NCBI GenBank assembly: GCA_937924775.1
Contig: CALDUT010000010.1
Location: 62,001 to 126,000, forward strand
Direction of reading: 5' to 3'
Source of the DNA: an uncultured Gemmata sp.
Lineage (GTDB): Bacteria; Planctomycetota; Planctomycetia; Gemmatales; Gemmataceae
Length of the DNA: 64,000 nucleotides
Below, piece after piece: positions 36,519 to 50,929 of this stretch; the stretch's first letter is position 1; each line of letters opens with the position of its first letter. Below the pieces are notes generated by a model. That model made no database searches. It worked only from the letters and a program-made list of their open reading frames with translations, and was not told the DNA's origin. The translations under genes were made by a program, and so were the position numbers.

Positions 36519-37238
36519 ATGCCGTTACCTGTTGAAAATCGTTTGTCCCAAGTGATTCCACCCATGTTTCCACCGATTACTCCCGCTCCCAAGGGAACCC
36601 CGCAAACGATGAGCCGGGAATTGCAATCCGCTGGCGAGATTCACATTCTGATTCTCGATGACGATCCGCATACGTGTGCCGTCATCCAGGCGGCGTTGTC
36701 GAATCGCGACTTCTCCGTGGATGTGGTGTCGGACCCGATGCTCGTCGAATCAGCACTCTCCGGCCCTACTTCTTACCACTTGATTATCCTCGACTATGTC
36801 TTACCTGGTCTGGAAATCGAACAGGTTTTTACCTGGATTCGTGATCGCCAACCCGATGCCAACATCATCGTGGTGACCGGCTATCCCTCCGTGGATAGTG
36901 CGATCAACTGCCTGCGGGCCCGCACCTGTGACTATCTCACCAAGCCGTTCCAGATCGAACAGTTGCGCGAAATAGTCCATCGTTGTTTGGAATCCAAAGG
37001 TCTTTTGCGGATGACCGAGGAAGCCCTCAAAGAAGCCTTGGGCCAAGCCATTCGCGAACGCCGCAAAGCCCTCGGTCTGACCTTGGCCAACATGAGCGAT
37101 CGCACTGGCGTGTCGTTGGGCTACCTCAGCCAGATCGAATTGGGGAAAAACTCGGCATCCATCGAAACGCTGTACAAAATCTGCCTGGCATTGGGCATGA
37201 AGATGAGCGAACTTTTCAATGCCATTCAGCGGGTGTAA
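36519..37238 (+). CDS. Response regulator with C-terminal XRE-type helix-turn-helix
   Basis: A 239-residue protein with GGAGG 9 bases before its ATG. A Pro-rich leader of ~40 residues is followed by a receiver domain: acidic pocket ILILDDDPH, phospho-acceptor Asp in LIILDYVLPG, Thr in IVVTGYPS, Lys in YLTKPFQ. After a helical linker, residues ~175-235 form a Cro/C1-type HTH (IRERRKALGLTLANMSDRTG, GYLSQIELGKNSAS). Receivers coupled to XRE HTH domains instead of OmpR, NarL or Fis output are uncommon. A strong terminator follows at 37260. Confidence 0.9.
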   Translation: MPLPVENRLSQVIPPMFPPITPAPKGTPQTMSRELQSAGEIHILILDDDPHTCAVIQAALSNRDFSVDVVSDPMLVESALSGPTSYHLIILDYVLPGLEIEQVFTWIRDRQPDANIIVVTGYPSVDSAINCLRARTCDYLTKPFQIEQLREIVHRCLESKGLLRMTEEALKEALGQAIRERRKALGLTLANMSDRTGVSLGYLSQIELGKNSASIETLYKICLALGMKMSELFNAIQRV

Positions 37239-37259: not shown

Positions 37260-37298
37260 ACACGGGCGGTCCACCCAAGGTGAGCCGCCCGTGTTTTT
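37260..37298 (+). terminator. Rho-independent terminator of the kinase/regulator operon
   Basis: ACACGGGCGG (37260-37269) and CCGCCCGTGT (37285-37294) form a 10-base stem, with TTTTT at 37294-37298. It ends the plus-strand operon and lies 15 bases past the stop of the minus-strand SelW-like gene. Confidence 0.88.
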
Positions 37299-37312: not shown

Positions 37313-37549
37313 TCAGTTCAGACGTTTCATCACTTCATCAATGATGAGTTGTTCGTTGGGAAATTCTCCCGTTTTTAACTTGGAGTAGATCAACTCCCCA
37401 TTCACGGCGATTTCAAAGCAGCCACCACCAGCGGGAATAAGCGTCAGGGATTGAAGCTTCTGTTTGAAATGCTCGAGTAGCCGGGCCGTCAAACTGACAG
37501 CCCTCGGTTCATAGTTTCATACGGAACAGTATTTCAATTCGATCGTCAT
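37313..37549 (-). CDS. SelW/Rdx-family selenoprotein (in-frame UGA = selenocysteine, predicted)
   Basis: The ATG at 37549 follows AAGGAGGT at 6 bases. The frame runs 78 codons to TGA at 37313, with one internal TGA at codon 11 (37517-37519). Residues are MTIELKYCSV, then the TGA, then NYEPRAVSLT. This places the TGA as the last residue of C-x-x-U, the redox motif of SelW/Rdx proteins (compare YCGAU in mammalian SelW, from memory). Downstream, GGGCFEIAVNGELIYSKLKT matches the family's FEV-x-V-x-G-x-LIxSK strand. Length fits the family (75-95). A SECIS-like hairpin begins 9 bases after the TGA. It is a thioredoxin-fold oxidoreductase by family. It lies 109 bp downstream of the anti-sigma gene on the same strand. 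The alternative is a Cys-to-stop mutation (TGC or TGT to TGA). Confidence 0.85.
37481..37507 (-). promoter_or_regulatory. Putative bacterial SECIS element
   Basis: Starting 9 bases after the TGA, the mRNA can form CCG(A)GG(G)CUGUC paired with GACGGCCCGG: ten base pairs including one U-G, two single-base bulges and an apical loop AGUUU. The loop starts 21 bases after the UGA and has G as its second base, followed by U. Both fit published rules for bacterial SECIS elements (G among the first loop bases, loop 16-37 bases from UGA), recalled from memory. Confidence 0.72.
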
Positions 37550-37658
37550 GGCGTGACCTCCTTGGGTGGCCGTCCACATTGACTGGCTGACAGTAGTACT
37601 ATACCGTCGGGACGAGCCGATTCCAAGCTTGGTAAGCGAGTTGGTTGGGGGGGAAGGA

Positions 37659-39768: not shown

Positions 39769-40500
39769 ATTTCACCCCGTATTACCAGATGATTGACGGT
39801 TTACCGCATTCGTCGATTAACTCTCGCGTCGAACAACCCTCTGATACACATGATTTCACGCACACTGAAGCTTTCATTCCCTCTGGGTATCGCCCATCCA
39901 CGCCAATAACGCTGCTGTGTAATTCCACCAGGCTTAGGTTTCTCCCATGCGGAAAATTTCATCCGTGGCCTGAATCTGTAGCCAGGTGAGGAATCCGCAC
40001 CTATGCAGTGGTCCCAATCATCGCCGCGATGCCAACGAGCAAGGGTTAAGGTAGCCCCTCCGACTACCTCCGCCATTTGTCCGTGAGTTACCCGCTTTGC
40101 TGCTTGTGATAATATGTGGCCTGAGGATCGGATAAGCCATTGGGGAATCATACAGCCAAACCCACGGTGGCGCGATGAGTCCTCCCGGGGGCACGGCGAT
40201 CGACAATCGAGAACATCTCGGCGGTGTTCTCAGTTGGGCGTGCTGCTTAGGAGCCGTGTCGGCAATCACGAGAACTTCCCACACTGTCTCAGCTTCGGCC
40301 GTATTCACCAGAAAGGGTTGCAGGGTGAGTTGCCGGCGGTGCCATCAACGGCCCTTATCCGGTTCGGAAAGCATGAAAGGCAGCGGTTCTCTGAAGCAAT
40401 CGCCGACTCTGACTTCTGTGACTGGTGGCTTGCCGCCTGGGTTCGACGCCGGGTATAGTTGATTTACCCGTTGAGAAAGCGTCCGTGTTGCGGAGTGTGC
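39769..40500. other. 732-base gene-free gap
   Basis: Open frames on both strands (for example 39801-40151 and 40018-40308, minus) lack ribosome binding sites, recognisable domains and normal composition. I see no transposon ends, RNA gene or strong hairpin. It may be decayed coding sequence or hold an unrecognised RNA. Confidence 0.45.
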
Positions 40501-43500
40501 ATGACCGTTCCGCCGGCGATCGAACAGCCACTTTACGAGCTAAGTCCGCGTCTGCGACGGATTCGTGTTGTGCGTGGGGCGGCCCGAAGTGTGTTGCTAG
40601 CGCTGCTGATGGTGTACGCGGTCGCCCTTTTCGACATCATTTCTCCACTGCCGGGTTGGGCACGGGCGATCAGCTTCGCGGCCTGGATCACCACCGTCGG
40701 CGTTTTGGTTTGGCGTTGGGTGCTGGTCCCCTGCCGGTCAGAAATTTCGTTGCCGGAAATCGCGAGAGAATTGGAGAAACGGTTGCCGGAGTTGGGGGAA
40801 CGGTTACGCGGGATACTTGAACGCGATCGGCCAAATATCACTCCCGCAGCTCATGCACTGTTAGTTGAGGATATGTCCCGCCGGCTGAAGTCAGTCCATT
40901 TCCCCCAGACCATTTCGTACATCCCGGCAATGACCCTCGCTTTAGCCGGCTTGGTGGCCCTCCTGAGTACCGCGGCAGTGGTGGCGTGTCATCCGTCGGC
41001 CGCGCATCAGCTCCGCCGGGTCGCGTTGCCCTGGTCACGGACGTGTGGTCTGACCGCATACTATGTCCACGTTGTTTCGCCGCCCACGGTTGTTCCGCGA
41101 GGTGAACCGGTGACCATCGCGGCCTATCCCAAACGTTACAATACGAATGAAAGAACTTATGTTTCTCATGCCGATGCCACATTGATTGTCCGCGACTGCG
41201 TGAGTTCGGTAGAAACTCAGTACATGATGCAAGCCGGAATTGGTGGTGAGTTTCACGTCACGCTGCCTGGAGCGTCTTCCGATTTCGATTTTTGTGTGCA
41301 ATTGGGGGAGGTGCGGAGTGAGTGGTGGCCGGTTGTGGTCGTGGATGCGGTGGAACTGACCGAGGCCACGCGAATTGTTGTTTCGCCGCCGCCCTACGTC
41401 GGCCTGCCTCCCCAAACCAACGGTTTTGCGGATGTAACCGTTCCTCAGTATAGTTTGATCGAGTTTGAAGGGAAGTTTGATCGCCCCGTCGCTTTTGCCA
41501 ATCTGGAGTGGCAGCCGGCGAATGCCGCAGCCAGTGAAAATCTGCGCTTGATCTGGCAACCCGATCGCTGCGGTGTGCAGACTTCTTTGCGGGTGTCACA
41601 CAACGGCCGAATTCGTCTGGTTGTGGCCACGGAGGAACGGGGCCAGAAGCTGTTTCGTGAGAAGGCCATCGCAGTTCGGGTGATTCCCGATGAACCGCCG
41701 CGTTTTGAGCAGCTTTCCGGCTTGGTTCGTCGCCTCCGAACTGCCAAACCCGAAGATATTCTGAAGATTGAGTTTACGGCGACGGATGACCGGGGCGTGG
41801 CTGCTGCCGCATTAGAGTATCAGATCGATACCAGGGATAACCCCATCACGATCCTGCCGCTTGCTCTCACATCTCGGGGCAATGGTGGATCTGCTGGAGC
41901 CGTCGAATTCCCGCTTGCGGGTCGGGTTCGAGAAGGGGATGTGCTACGCCTACGACTGCGGGTATTCGATAACCGCACCGTTGAGGGATTGGCCTTGGTA
42001 CCGCAAGAGGCCGTTTATCCTCCGGTGGGATGGTCGGAACTGCGCATTCATCCCCATGCGGAAAGTCTTGCGCTGCAGGACGTTATCGCACAACGGGATG
42101 ATATTCAAGATCGGCTGGCGTTGGCCACTGCGGAACTGACCGCGGCAGCGTCCGAGATCGACATTGTGCACAGGGAATCGACCGGTTCCGCTTTATTGGA
42201 AGTCCATCATCAAACGCGGTTGCAGAATGCCCGAATGCATATTCAAACGGCTCGGCATGCGCTGCATGAGGCCGCCGCGGAAGCACAGTTGGCCCCCCCC
42301 CTACGGCAGTTCGCGACAGAATGCCAGGAAGTGGCCCATGAGCTGTTCCACCGCGCTGCCGTTGCTCTACTCCAAGCGGAAACGGATCAGCCAACCATCC
42401 GCCACGAAGCGTTGAACCAAGCTCGCGCCTGCCTGAACCCCAGCATACGTCGAACCCGCGAACTGCAGGAAACCAATGCTACGATCGCACAACACCGGTT
42501 CGACCGGTTGCAATTATTGGCGTTAGCATCGGAATTGGCCGCATCAGCCACCCTCTCACCAAAGGCCGCTCGTGTTGAGATACATCGCCAGCTCGCGGCA
42601 CAACTCGATACGATCATTGCCCGCAGTCCGAGCCTCCGGCAGGCGGTTGAAACAGCGAAAAATGCGGAATTTCAGCAATGGCTGTGCAACATTCGCAAGC
42701 AGGGCGAATTCCTCCAGCAATGGAATCAGCAAGCTGAGGAACTTTACACGCTCACACGCCAGGAACGGATCACTGACATTGTGCGTCAGCAAGAGGTACT
42801 GGTGCAACAAGCAGTGAAAGTCCTCCGTGACGTCGAAACGGCGTGTCGGCTGGTGGGAGTCACGCTGCCATCACCCCACGAACTGCGCCGAACGGCCGAG
42901 CTGGCAGCAACTGGCAAGACAGTTGAGGCTCTGGCAGAACTCGAAAAACATACGCAAATGCTCGAACGTGTCGCCCAAACCTTCGAGCGTTGGTCGCTGG
43001 AACGCCGTGATCCAAAAGAGGCGGCTCACCAGCTTGTACGTTGGCAAGACGACTTGCTGACGCGTTTTCGCACAGCGACCAAGGACGTCGCCTACATCGG
43101 GCTTCAAGAGGAAGAAAAAGCGCGATTTCAACTGGAGCAACACGCCATCCTGGAAGCAGTGCGATCGCTCGAAGGGCCCAAGGAGGCAGCGTTCGGCCCT
43201 GCACACGAACAGGCGGTGCGGCACACCACCGCGGCGCTACGCTCTTTGGCAGGCAACGGGGCCACCGCCGAGGCTGCAATGACCGCCGCGACAACCGCGT
43301 TGCGAACACTCGCCACCAGCACCCCGTCGTTGGCTGAACGGCTAACACTCAGCCTGCGAACGGTCGATTCTCTTCGTTTACAGTGGGAAGCCACCAGCAA
43401 CACTGTGGAACTGACGCTCAAGAAAATCGACCGCCTCACACCCGAAACACTCGCCAAACACTGGGCCCCCATCGCTGACAAACAGGGGAAACTCGTATCA

Positions 43501-44859
43501 TTAGCGGAATCGTTAGACCTCCCTGGGTTGCAATCACGGCAGGCGCGGCTGATCCGGGCGATGAAAACCGCACTGGCCGATTTGCACACCGCTGCGTCGC
43601 TCGATGTGCCAGCATCGCAAGCGTGGGTTCGCCGGGAGTTGGAGCGGCTCAAATGGGTTTTAGAGGGTTATTCCAGTCCGGACGATCGAGCGGAGGAAGC
43701 CGCCCAGAAACTTCTTCAATTGGCCGCATCTGCCGCTGTATCACGCGACTCGGGGGACAGCCCTCCGGAACGTCTTGCACCGGTCCTGCAAGACGTTCTG
43801 CGGCAACTGAATTCCCTCGTGGCCCCCGAGGCCCCGGCCCTGTGGCAGGAAGCTCGTAATCTGGTGCAGCGGGCTGAACAGGCGACCCGCGAAGGCTCTC
43901 CAGAACGCGTTCAAGTGGCGTTGGAAGCCGCCGCGGAGGCTACCCGGCAACTGGCCGATCGACTCAATGGCCGCGAAACCGGTCTCGAACGCATCCAACG
44001 GCTTGCGTACAACCGCCGATCCGCCGCGGAGAAACCCAAAGAACGGCTCCTATCCGATGACATGATTCGTCAGTTGAGCCGCGAAGCCGATGAACTCCTG
44101 CACACACGCGTCGGCTGGGCCGGCGGCCCGCTCAAGAAACGCGCCCTGGATTTATACAGTAAATTACGCACCAAATCGGACCTCGACCGCTTCGGCACGG
44201 ATCATAAAGCCTTGATCGCTGTTTTGGATGAGCTCGCGGCCCTCATGGCTGACAACGCCGATTTGGCGACCTTGGAACCTCGGCCGCCAGTCAGGGCGGC
44301 GTTGGTCGCCGAACGCATTCTCCCTTCAAGTGAACTCGCGGCATCGCTCCGCACCCTGATCGAACTCTACCGGCCGCTACACACTTACATCGCAAACCTC
44401 ACCCATCAGTTGCACACGCGCTTTCGCCCCGGCTTGTGGCCGGCTTCCCGCCGATGCTCCTTGCTACAAGTTATTCATATTCAAGAACTTATAGAGGAAA
44501 TCGGCCAGCTGATAACGGTTGGGGAAGCCATCGGGTTGTTGAACGGGGCCGATGCGGCGACCCAGCAACGGCTCATGGACGCGATCGCACAGCTCCGCGA
44601 GGCCGAAAAACGCCTGCGTACCGCACGCTCACGCCACCTCGCCGGTGTACTATCAGAAGCGATTCAACTCCGGACCGATGCCACAACCCGCTTGCTGGCT
44701 GTGGGCGAATCCGTCGCTCCTTCAATGCTCTCGGTAACTCCGAGCGTGACCGGGGAACACATTCTCATAGCTTTGCGAGCGATCCGCCAGCCAGAAGAAG
44801 CCGCGATCCGCCGCGCAGCGGCCGCTCTCGAACATGCCGCCCAAAGCCTTGGTCGCTGA
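40501..44859 (+). CDS. Very large DUF4175-like membrane-anchored coiled-coil protein
   Basis: A 1452-residue protein from the ATG at 40501 behind GGAG. Two hydrophobic helices lie near residues 35-75 (VLLALLMVYAVALFDIIS, AISFAAWITTVGVLVWRW) and a third near 140-165 (ALAGLVALLSTAAVVAC). After these come Ig-like beta domains (YVHVVSPPTVVPRGEPVTIA, VIPDEPPRFEQL, IEFTATDDRGVAAAALEY), as in DUF4175/TIGR02302-type proteins. From about residue 540 to the end the chain is almost entirely Ala/Glu/Gln/Arg/Leu-rich helix, predicted coiled coil. Family function is unknown. The frame is intact over 4.3 kb. clpB follows 107 bases downstream on the same strand. Confidence 0.75.
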   Translation: MTVPPAIEQPLYELSPRLRRIRVVRGAARSVLLALLMVYAVALFDIISPLPGWARAISFAAWITTVGVLVWRWVLVPCRSEISLPEIARELEKRLPELGERLRGILERDRPNITPAAHALLVEDMSRRLKSVHFPQTISYIPAMTLALAGLVALLSTAAVVACHPSAAHQLRRVALPWSRTCGLTAYYVHVVSPPTVVPRGEPVTIAAYPKRYNTNERTYVSHADATLIVRDCVSSVETQYMMQAGIGGEFHVTLPGASSDFDFCVQLGEVRSEWWPVVVVDAVELTEATRIVVSPPPYVGLPPQTNGFADVTVPQYSLIEFEGKFDRPVAFANLEWQPANAAASENLRLIWQPDRCGVQTSLRVSHNGRIRLVVATEERGQKLFREKAIAVRVIPDEPPRFEQLSGLVRRLRTAKPEDILKIEFTATDDRGVAAAALEYQIDTRDNPITILPLALTSRGNGGSAGAVEFPLAGRVREGDVLRLRLRVFDNRTVEGLALVPQEAVYPPVGWSELRIHPHAESLALQDVIAQRDDIQDRLALATAELTAAASEIDIVHRESTGSALLEVHHQTRLQNARMHIQTARHALHEAAAEAQLAPPLRQFATECQEVAHELFHRAAVALLQAETDQPTIRHEALNQARACLNPSIRRTRELQETNATIAQHRFDRLQLLALASELAASATLSPKAARVEIHRQLAAQLDTIIARSPSLRQAVETAKNAEFQQWLCNIRKQGEFLQQWNQQAEELYTLTRQERITDIVRQQEVLVQQAVKVLRDVETACRLVGVTLPSPHELRRTAELAATGKTVEALAELEKHTQMLERVAQTFERWSLERRDPKEAAHQLVRWQDDLLTRFRTATKDVAYIGLQEEEKARFQLEQHAILEAVRSLEGPKEAAFGPAHEQAVRHTTAALRSLAGNGATAEAAMTAATTALRTLATSTPSLAERLTLSLRTVDSLRLQWEATSNTVELTLKKIDRLTPETLAKHWAPIADKQGKLVSLAESLDLPGLQSRQARLIRAMKTALADLHTAASLDVPASQAWVRRELERLKWVLEGYSSPDDRAEEAAQKLLQLAASAAVSRDSGDSPPERLAPVLQDVLRQLNSLVAPEAPALWQEARNLVQRAEQATREGSPERVQVALEAAAEATRQLADRLNGRETGLERIQRLAYNRRSAAEKPKERLLSDDMIRQLSREADELLHTRVGWAGGPLKKRALDLYSKLRTKSDLDRFGTDHKALIAVLDELAALMADNADLATLEPRPPVRAALVAERILPSSELAASLRTLIELYRPLHTYIANLTHQLHTRFRPGLWPASRRCSLLQVIHIQELIEEIGQLITVGEAIGLLNGADAATQQRLMDAIAQLREAEKRLRTARSRHLAGVLSEAIQLRTDATTRLLAVGESVAPSMLSVTPSVTGEHILIALRAIRQPEEAAIRRAAAALEHAAQSLGR

Positions 44860-50044: not shown

Positions 50045-50929
50045 ATGAGTCGGATGCGCATTCAAGAACTACCAGCCCTGCCGCCGCGGGCCCCCGAGGG
50101 ACATAAAGGAACCTACGGAACCATTTTGGTGGTCGCGGGCAGTCGGGGCATGAGTGGGGCGGCCATCCTCTGCGGCCGCGCGGCCTTGCGGAGCGGTGCG
50201 GGGTTGGTTCAGGTGGCTTGCCCTATCGAAGTGCAACCGATTGTGGCGGCCGCGTATCCGGGCTACACCACATTTGGCATCCGGCAGCATACCGATGGCA
50301 GCTTTGGCGATGGTACCGTCGAAGAGTTGTTGGAACGTGTTCGGGAAGTGGATGTGGTCGCGATTGGCCCGGGCTTGGGCCGGCAACCGGCGACCATCGA
50401 ATTCGTACAACGTCTATTAGCCGCTGTTACCGATAAGCCATTGGTTCTTGATGCCGATGGGTTGTTTGCGATTTCGCCATTTCGTGAGGAGTTCCGGCGG
50501 TCGTCGCCGTGGGTGTTGACGCCGCATCCTGGGGAATTTGCCCGACTGACCGGCGGCTCCTGGCCCCAGAACGATGACGAACGGGAAGAACAGACCCACC
50601 GCTTCGCCCAACGCTGTGGCGGGGTGGTACTCCTCAAGGGGGCCGGCACAGTCGTTGCCGATGGCAGCCGCTGGTATCGCAACGCCACAGGCAATCCCGG
50701 CATGGCCACCGGTGGCAGTGGCGACGTTCTTACCGGCGTGATTGCGGCTTTGATCGGCCAAGGTCTGACATGCTTTGAAGCGGCTGTGTTGGCAGCGTGG
50801 ATTCATGGCCGGGCTGGGGATTGGGCCGCGCAAGCCTTGGGTCAAACCGCTCTCACCGCGGTGGATCTGCTGGATTACCTTCCTGCGGTTTTCCGTGAAT
50901 TGGAACAATCGTGGTCGTCGCGGAGTTGA
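50045..50929 (+). CDS. nnrD: ADP-dependent NAD(P)H-hydrate dehydratase
   Basis: A 294-residue enzyme that restores damaged (hydrated) NADH and NADPH, here as the stand-alone C-terminal YjeF domain. Signatures are the ribokinase-like GTYGTILVVAGSRGMSGAAI, the VLDADGLFAI strand, VLTPHPGEFARL, VVLLKGAGTVVADG and the phosphate-binding NPGMATGGSGDVLTGVIAAL. The epimerase domain (NnrE) is not fused and not adjacent. The ATG at 50045 has no strong Shine-Dalgarno; the Met three residues later is an alternative. Confidence 0.93.
   Translation: MSRMRIQELPALPPRAPEGHKGTYGTILVVAGSRGMSGAAILCGRAALRSGAGLVQVACPIEVQPIVAAAYPGYTTFGIRQHTDGSFGDGTVEELLERVREVDVVAIGPGLGRQPATIEFVQRLLAAVTDKPLVLDADGLFAISPFREEFRRSSPWVLTPHPGEFARLTGGSWPQNDDEREEQTHRFAQRCGGVVLLKGAGTVVADGSRWYRNATGNPGMATGGSGDVLTGVIAALIGQGLTCFEAAVLAAWIHGRAGDWAAQALGQTALTAVDLLDYLPAVFRELEQSWSSRS

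What the first reader, a model, noticed from the sequence alone, without database searches (positions are those of the whole stretch)
37313..37549. Unannotated SelW/Rdx selenoprotein gene with in-frame UGA and SECIS-like hairpin
The minus-strand frame from ATG 37549 (AAGGAGGT 6 bases upstream) is interrupted only by TGA at codon 11 and continues 67 codons in one frame. The TGA sits exactly at the redox position of the C-x-x-C/U motif (YCSV then TGA then NYEPRA). The C-terminal half retains the SelW-type FEIAVNGELIYSKLK. A ten-base-pair hairpin with loop AGUUU starts 9 bases after UGA, the loop 21 bases after. Three independent signals (family fit at the exact residue, RBS, SECIS) agree, so the UGA is very likely read as selenocysteine.
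Basis: partly seen in the sequence, partly recalled or inferred. Interest (0 to 1): 0.92.

Follow-up and report, generated by a model that had tools for sequence, protein, structure and literature searches.

The report
A bacterial selenoprotein W gene
This small planctomycete gene contains a stop codon that is almost certainly read as the rare amino acid selenocysteine, making it a good but ordinary new example of an already known selenoprotein family.

Summary
Minus-strand 37549-37313 encodes a 78-residue Rdx/SelW-like protein (Pfam Rdx, E 7e-21) with UGA at codon 11, the second redox position of C-x-x-U. The same genome carries selA, selB, selD and a tRNA-Sec with UCA anticodon. Besides the window's own copy, 57 of 57 loci read (about 54 distinct records) have TGA at codon 11, while their true stops are mixed. 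In 393 Planctomycetota genomes, 118 of 123 with an in-frame TGA in an Rdx match have selA, against 89 of 270 others. A hairpin with a loop G follows the UGA. In this one sequence it is weak evidence (25 of 1927 TGAs in the window do as well), but over 80 distinct windows it shows compensatory changes, and the loop serine is AGT in 59 of 60 cases against 18 of 296 serines elsewhere. Eleven homologues without TGA form 1 to 5 of 7 core pairs. A second, peroxiredoxin-like U-x-x-C candidate lies elsewhere in the genome. Bacterial SelW-like selenoproteins with such elements have been in print at least since 2005, so this is a new member of a known kind. No selenium incorporation has been measured.

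The parts
37313..37549 (-). Rdx/SelW-like selenoprotein gene, 78 residues including Sec, stop TGA 37315-37313
   Evidence: Pfam PF10262 E 7.4e-21, NCBIfam TIGR02174 66 bits over cut-off 34.2 (the query ran five codons past the stop); 80% identical relative in the same genus; pN well below pS in codons 23-70
37517..37519 (-). codon 11, UGA read as selenocysteine, second position of C-x-x-U
   Evidence: TGA in 58 of 58 loci read (the window's own copy and three apparent duplicates included)
37483..37503 (-). SECIS hairpin, nine pairs, loop GUU (37494-37492)
   Evidence: RNAfold; covariation over 80 distinct windows
37556..37563 (-). Shine-Dalgarno AAGGAGGT, six bases before ATG
   Evidence: sequence
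37261..37293 (-). strong hairpin 19 bases after the stop, between this gene and the convergent response-regulator gene; possible terminator, no T-run on this strand
   Evidence: RNAfold of 37312-37240, -34.8 kcal/mol for the stretch; the terminator scan did not list it

Best explanation
The gene encodes a bacterial SelW-like (Rdx family) selenoprotein. Shown by sequence: family membership, conserved UGA at the redox position, the complete Sec machinery in the genome, and a covarying hairpin right after the UGA. Inferred: during translation SelB carrying Sec-tRNA(UCA) binds the hairpin, whose loop G is the 23rd base after the UGA, and Sec is inserted instead of termination. The product is then a small redox protein with a Cys-x-x-Sec site; its substrate is unknown. 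A selenol-thiol redox role with small thiols or proteins as partners is the most likely function.
For: Machinery: selB 410 bits, selA 568 bits and selD 388 bits, each over the curated cut-off, and tRNA-Sec 73 bits (gathering score 47) that ARAGORN reads with anticodon UCA. Family: Rdx E 7.4e-21; solved relatives include 2fa8, 2p0g 'Selenoprotein W-related protein' and 2npb 'Selenoprotein W'. Conservation: TGA at codon 11 in 58 of 58 loci (own copy and three apparent duplicates included), true stops TGA 25, TAA 18, TAG 15, and in 27 of 27 further TGA-containing stretches picked by hand. Co-occurrence: 118 of 123 genomes with an in-frame TGA in an Rdx match have selA at E 1e-60 or better versus 89 of 270 others, Fisher p 1e-35 without correction for relatedness; four of the five genomes whose only matches have no TGA have no such selA match. 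Hairpin: 496 of 560 core pair cells paired versus mean 473.9, sd 2.1, maximum 481 in 1000 codon shuffles that keep protein and column make-up; five of eight pairs with changes on both sides (shuffled mean 2.7, 4 of 500 reach it), 52 such cells versus 13.2 shuffled (0 of 500), covariation score 0.312 versus 0.047-0.122 in six slid registers. Loop codon: Ser AGT 59 of 60 (elsewhere in the genes 18 of 296), Gly GGT 18 of 20 (elsewhere 70 of 451). Selection after the UGA: pN 0.09 versus pS 0.72 against the nearest relative.
Against: No expression, 75Se or mass-spectrometry data. Five of 123 TGA-Rdx genomes have no selA match at E 1e-60 (G102, G132, G155, G237, G359; completeness 90-92%). Within the window's own family the co-occurrence test is uninformative: 68 of 75 Rdx genomes and 17 of 20 without Rdx have selA over the cut-off. 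Eleven of 80 windows form only 3 to 5 of the 7 core pairs, and one of the 11 non-TGA homologues also reaches 5. The outer pairs are poor: 39, 34 and 16 of 80 unpaired in the three outermost of eight, and RNAalifold on its own predicts only the five inner pairs. On two measures the slid registers come close: up to 4 pairs with changes on both sides against 5, up to 15 further pair types against 17. In this sequence alone the hairpin is not rare. Rfam gave nothing at gathering score.
Confidence: 0.97

Rival explanations
1. A recent pseudogene or sequencing error created the in-frame TGA.
For: An in-frame stop is the usual sign of decay; one relative (G087, L092) is split over two frames inside the gene.
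Against: The same TGA in the 57 other loci read (about 54 distinct records), an in-frame TGA in 123 of 128 phylum genomes with a match, and pN well below pS after it in ten of ten relatives compared.
Confidence: 0.01
2. The UGA is a real stop; a 10-residue peptide is made and the downstream part is translated by reinitiation or not at all.
For: No protein data exist for this gene; TTG at codon 20 could serve as a start.
Against: The residues before and after the UGA form one continuous Rdx match (residues 2-73 on profile 1-72), and codon 11 aligns with Cys in seven of 11 homologues without TGA. The hairpin constraint follows the TGA and is weaker in the non-TGA homologues, 1 to 5 of 7 core pairs.
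Confidence: 0.01
3. UGA is read as another amino acid (Trp, Gly or Cys) by a different tRNA in this organism.
For: One family member has Gly at this position (L080) and other homologues have Cys, Gly or Ala.
Against: UGA also ends this same gene, and ends 25 of the 58 loci read; tRNA-Sec(UCA), selA, selB and selD are present. Other UCA tRNAs were not searched for.
Confidence: 0.01

Closest known systems
Bacterial SelW-like selenoprotein family (PMC1088965; PMC1794560)
   Same: Rdx/SelW-type protein with C-x-x-U and a bacterial SECIS with a G in a small apical loop right after the UGA; SelW-like was the most abundant Sargasso Sea family, 48 genes (passages read).
   Different: This one is from a planctomycete genome not treated there. 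No mechanistic difference seen.
SelW of Epsilonproteobacteria (PMC4607533)
   Same: Sec SelW genes, some missed in annotation, with a 5/6-pair apical hairpin and an invariant loop guanosine (passages read).
   Different: Different phylum; the predicted stem here is nine pairs, though only five inner pairs are in the RNAalifold consensus.
NCBIfam TIGR02174 CXXU_selWTH and Pfam PF10262 Rdx
   Same: Sequence family; both models hit above their curated cut-offs.
   Different: Both families also contain Cys forms (recalled), which do not need Sec insertion.

Membership tests
Rdx / SelW-like (SelTWH) family | match to curated family models over cut-off | tested here: met
   PF10262 74.6 bits over 22.6; TIGR02174 66 over 34.2; the equivalog NF041051 (SelTWH_Campy) at 79 bits is below its cut-off of 88
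Rdx / SelW-like (SelTWH) family | C-x-x-C or C-x-x-U redox motif near the N-terminus | tested here: met
   C8-S-V-U11
Rdx / SelW-like (SelTWH) family | thioredoxin-like fold | not tested
   no structure was predicted; sequence relatives with solved structures exist
bacterial selenoprotein (Sec-decoded gene) | selA, selB, selC and selD in the genome | tested here: met
bacterial selenoprotein (Sec-decoded gene) | in-frame UGA at a redox position conserved as Sec/Cys in homologues | tested here: met
   58 of 58 loci with TGA, own copy included; Cys at this place in seven of the 11 non-TGA homologues read, Gly in three, Ala in one
bacterial selenoprotein (Sec-decoded gene) | SECIS hairpin right after UGA with G in the apical loop | tested here: met
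   bSECISearch itself not available
bacterial selenoprotein (Sec-decoded gene) | selenium in the protein | not testable with these tools
   needs 75Se labelling or mass spectrometry

The most novel reading that the evidence does not exclude
In Planctomycetota the Sec form of this SelW subfamily is close to obligatory: where Sec is lost the gene tends to disappear, or turns to Gly as in one genome of the window's family, rather than to Cys, and the hairpin fixes part of the protein's own sequence (Ser or Gly with an AGU/GGU codon at residue 19). SelW would then be a main reason why many of these genomes keep the Sec machinery. Against it: one genome with selA has a Cys form (G256), and four genomes without selA carry Cys forms, though those look like a different, distant subfamily.
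Probability: 0.15. Interest if true: 0.4.

Novelty: new member of a known kind. Interest (0 to 1): 0.2.

Why it matters
It adds a well-supported selenoprotein of a kind that gene callers tend to miss, gives a covarying hairpin set of 80 windows that could train a planctomycete SECIS model, and shows a clear case where RNA structure dictates codon choice. It does not change what is known about how bacteria insert selenocysteine. The link of SelW-like genes with selA over 393 Planctomycetota genomes may help with the question why the Sec trait is kept.

Tried and rejected
Pseudogene and sequencing error: rejected by conservation. Single-sequence hairpin as proof: rejected as too weak. Rfam for a known element: two weak snoRNA hits far below gathering scores. 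Within-family selA co-occurrence: uninformative, since 85 of 95 genomes have selA over the cut-off; replaced by the phylum sample. Other selenoproteins by hairpin model R1: 50 bits at this gene, next best 16 bits at E 2.5. This gene is one of the model's own sequences, so it matches by construction; only 150 of 3376 first-look candidates were scored, and the model is shaped by this gene's codons, so others are not excluded. Molybdopterin family (formate dehydrogenase type): three matches, none with a stop inside. Peroxiredoxin family: one of 16 matches has an in-frame TGA. The tRNA-Sec search scored 150 of 1082 candidates; a second hit just over the gathering score (L010) is tRNA-Ser by ARAGORN. 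Promoter scan: one site, 37626-37598, where 0.4 are expected by chance; not used. Possible fusions of Rdx to long open frames in G015, G252 and G334: fetched, but only the Rdx part of G015 was scanned, so fusion was not tested. Literature: five searches, of which 'selenoprotein + Planctomycetes + SelW' and 'selenoprotein + Gemmata + selenocysteine' gave one paper each. Passages were read in PMC1794560, PMC4807772, PMC1088965 and PMC4607533. Term searches found none of the terms asked for in PMC13188914, PMC12013277 and PMC5029168, and only bSECISearch in PMC9312934; PMC2398784 was seen only in a listing. The selenoprotein table of the planctomycete paper PMC4807772 is in a supplement; supplement look-ups are capped at 0 here and none was tried, so a published planctomycete SelW is not excluded.

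Full report
What is there. On the minus strand an ATG at 37549 preceded by AAGGAGGT opens a frame with TGA at codon 11 (37519-37517), 67 more sense codons and a final TGA at 37315-37313. Read through codon 11, the product matches Pfam Rdx (E 7.4e-21) and NCBIfam TIGR02174 over their cut-offs and solved SelW-related proteins such as 2fa8, 2p0g and 2npb. The query used ran five codons past the stop. The UGA sits at the second position of C-x-x-U.

Machinery. The window's genome (4.79 Mb, 27 contigs, 97% complete) has selB on C10, selA on C1, selD on C8 (apparently a Cys form, RAGCAAK; the position is recalled) and a tRNA-Sec with UCA anticodon on C4, each over its family cut-off. The four genes lie on four different contigs.

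Relatives. Of 95 genomes searched in the family, the window's own included, 75 have a match. One, G005, has only a stop-free match, with Gly at codon 11 (L080); another, G087, is split over two frames. Reading 58 loci codon by codon gave TGA at codon 11 in 58 of 58, with true stops TGA 25, TAA 18 and TAG 15. One of the 58 is the window's own copy and three pairs appear to be one record twice, which leaves about 54 other records; 30 of the 58 were the best-scoring matches. The named records include Gemmatales, Pirellulales, Acidobacteria, Verrucomicrobiia, and MAGs labelled Bacteroidales and Bacillaceae. The closest named one is a Gemmatales genome, 73% identical, so the window is most likely from Gemmatales (inference).

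Link with the Sec trait. In a sample of 393 Planctomycetota genomes at least 90% complete, 128 have an Rdx match at E 0.001, 123 of them with a TGA inside. That the TGA is codon 11 was read only in the loci fetched. Of the 123, 118 have selA at E 1e-60, against 89 of the other 270; Fisher p 1e-35, not corrected for relatedness. Of five genomes whose only matches have no TGA, four have no such selA match and one (G256) has. Within the family alone the test says nothing, because nearly all genomes have selA: 68 of 75 with Rdx, 17 of 20 without.

The hairpin. RNAfold gives nine pairs with loop GUU, 14 to 34 bases after the UGA. On its own this is not rare: 25 of the 1927 TGAs in the window, this one included, do as well on stem length, 231 of 5000 synonymous recodings reach the stem length and 211 of 1000 the energy. 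The comparison is what carries weight. In 80 distinct windows from 96 usable loci (of 98), 496 of 560 cells of the seven core pairs are paired. Shuffling codons within columns among equal amino acids gives 473.9, sd 2.1, maximum 481 in 1000; free synonymous resampling gives 370, sd 7, maximum 392 in 200. On alignment A1 five of eight pairs show changes on both sides, with 52 such cells against 13.2 shuffled. Slid registers pair 22.5 to 43.6% of cells against 83.9% and have covariation scores of 0.047 to 0.122 against 0.312, but come close on pairs with changes on both sides (1 to 4 against 5) and on further pair types (6 to 15 against 17). The five inner pairs carry the signal and are all that RNAalifold predicts; the three outermost of the eight are unpaired in 39, 34 and 16 of 80. 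The loop codon is AGT in 59 of 60 serines and GGT in 18 of 20 glycines, against 18 of 296 and 70 of 451 elsewhere in the same genes. The 11 non-TGA homologues form 1 to 5 of the 7 core pairs; of the 80 windows 69 form 6 or 7 and 11 form 3 to 5. The shuffles do not correct for relatedness; the slid registers do, but the structure was taken from these sequences, which favours it over slid ones. The loop codon and the non-TGA homologues are separate evidence.

Selection. Against the nearest relative pN is 0.09 and pS 0.72 over codons 23 to 70; in ten of ten relatives compared pN (0.09 to 0.31) is well below pS (0.63 to 0.93), which is near saturation. The codons before the UGA were not tested. 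The gene order around it is kept in that relative: HEAT protein, histidine kinase, response regulator with HTH, this gene, a weakly DUF3379-like protein (possibly an anti-sigma factor), sigma factor.

A second candidate. Among 16 peroxiredoxin-type matches in the genome one, on C20, has an in-frame TGA, in the setting LRHLA-U-ILC, that is U-x-x-C, followed by a seven-pair hairpin with loop GGU at +22 to +24. It matches AhpC-TSA_2 at E 1.3e-17. Relatives of it were not compared. Prx-like U-x-x-C selenoproteins are listed in PMC1088965. The Rdx hairpin model finds no other strong site, but only 150 of 3376 candidates were scored.

Mechanism and novelty. The accepted bacterial mechanism (SelB with Sec-tRNA and the SECIS) explains what is seen; insertion itself is inferred. 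Bacterial SelW-like selenoproteins are long known (PMC1088965, PMC1794560, PMC4607533; passages read), and PMC1794560 already notes few or no Cys forms of SelW-like in Sec-using organisms. Planctomycete selenoproteins are reported in PMC4807772 (passages read; its table is in a supplement not seen). This is a new member of a known kind.

Noticed in passing
L131 (G000:C20:50616-50924, minus strand; TGA at 50816): Second selenoprotein candidate in the same genome: AhpC-TSA_2 peroxiredoxin-like protein with U-x-x-C and a seven-pair hairpin with loop GGU 22 bases after the UGA.
   Followed up: partly
L080 (G005:C172:17780-18004): Relative with Gly (GGT) instead of Sec at codon 11 and a weaker hairpin (4 of 7 core pairs) although selA is present in that genome.
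   Followed up: partly
L092 (G087:C1:4168756-4168991): Relative in a single-contig genome is split over two frames in the middle of the gene, keeping TGA and the hairpin sequence; sequencing error or recent decay.
   Followed up: partly
own genome, loci L001, L009, L017, L018: selB, tRNA-Sec, selA and selD lie on four different contigs.
   Followed up: no
37261-37293: Strong GC-rich hairpin between the convergent Rdx and response-regulator genes without a T-run; possible terminator.
   Followed up: no
40459-44859: 1466-residue open frame without any Pfam match at E 0.001, upstream of a clpB-like gene.
   Followed up: no
36519-37238: Protein joining a response-regulator receiver domain to a Cro/CI-type HTH, next to a histidine-kinase-like gene.
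   Followed up: no
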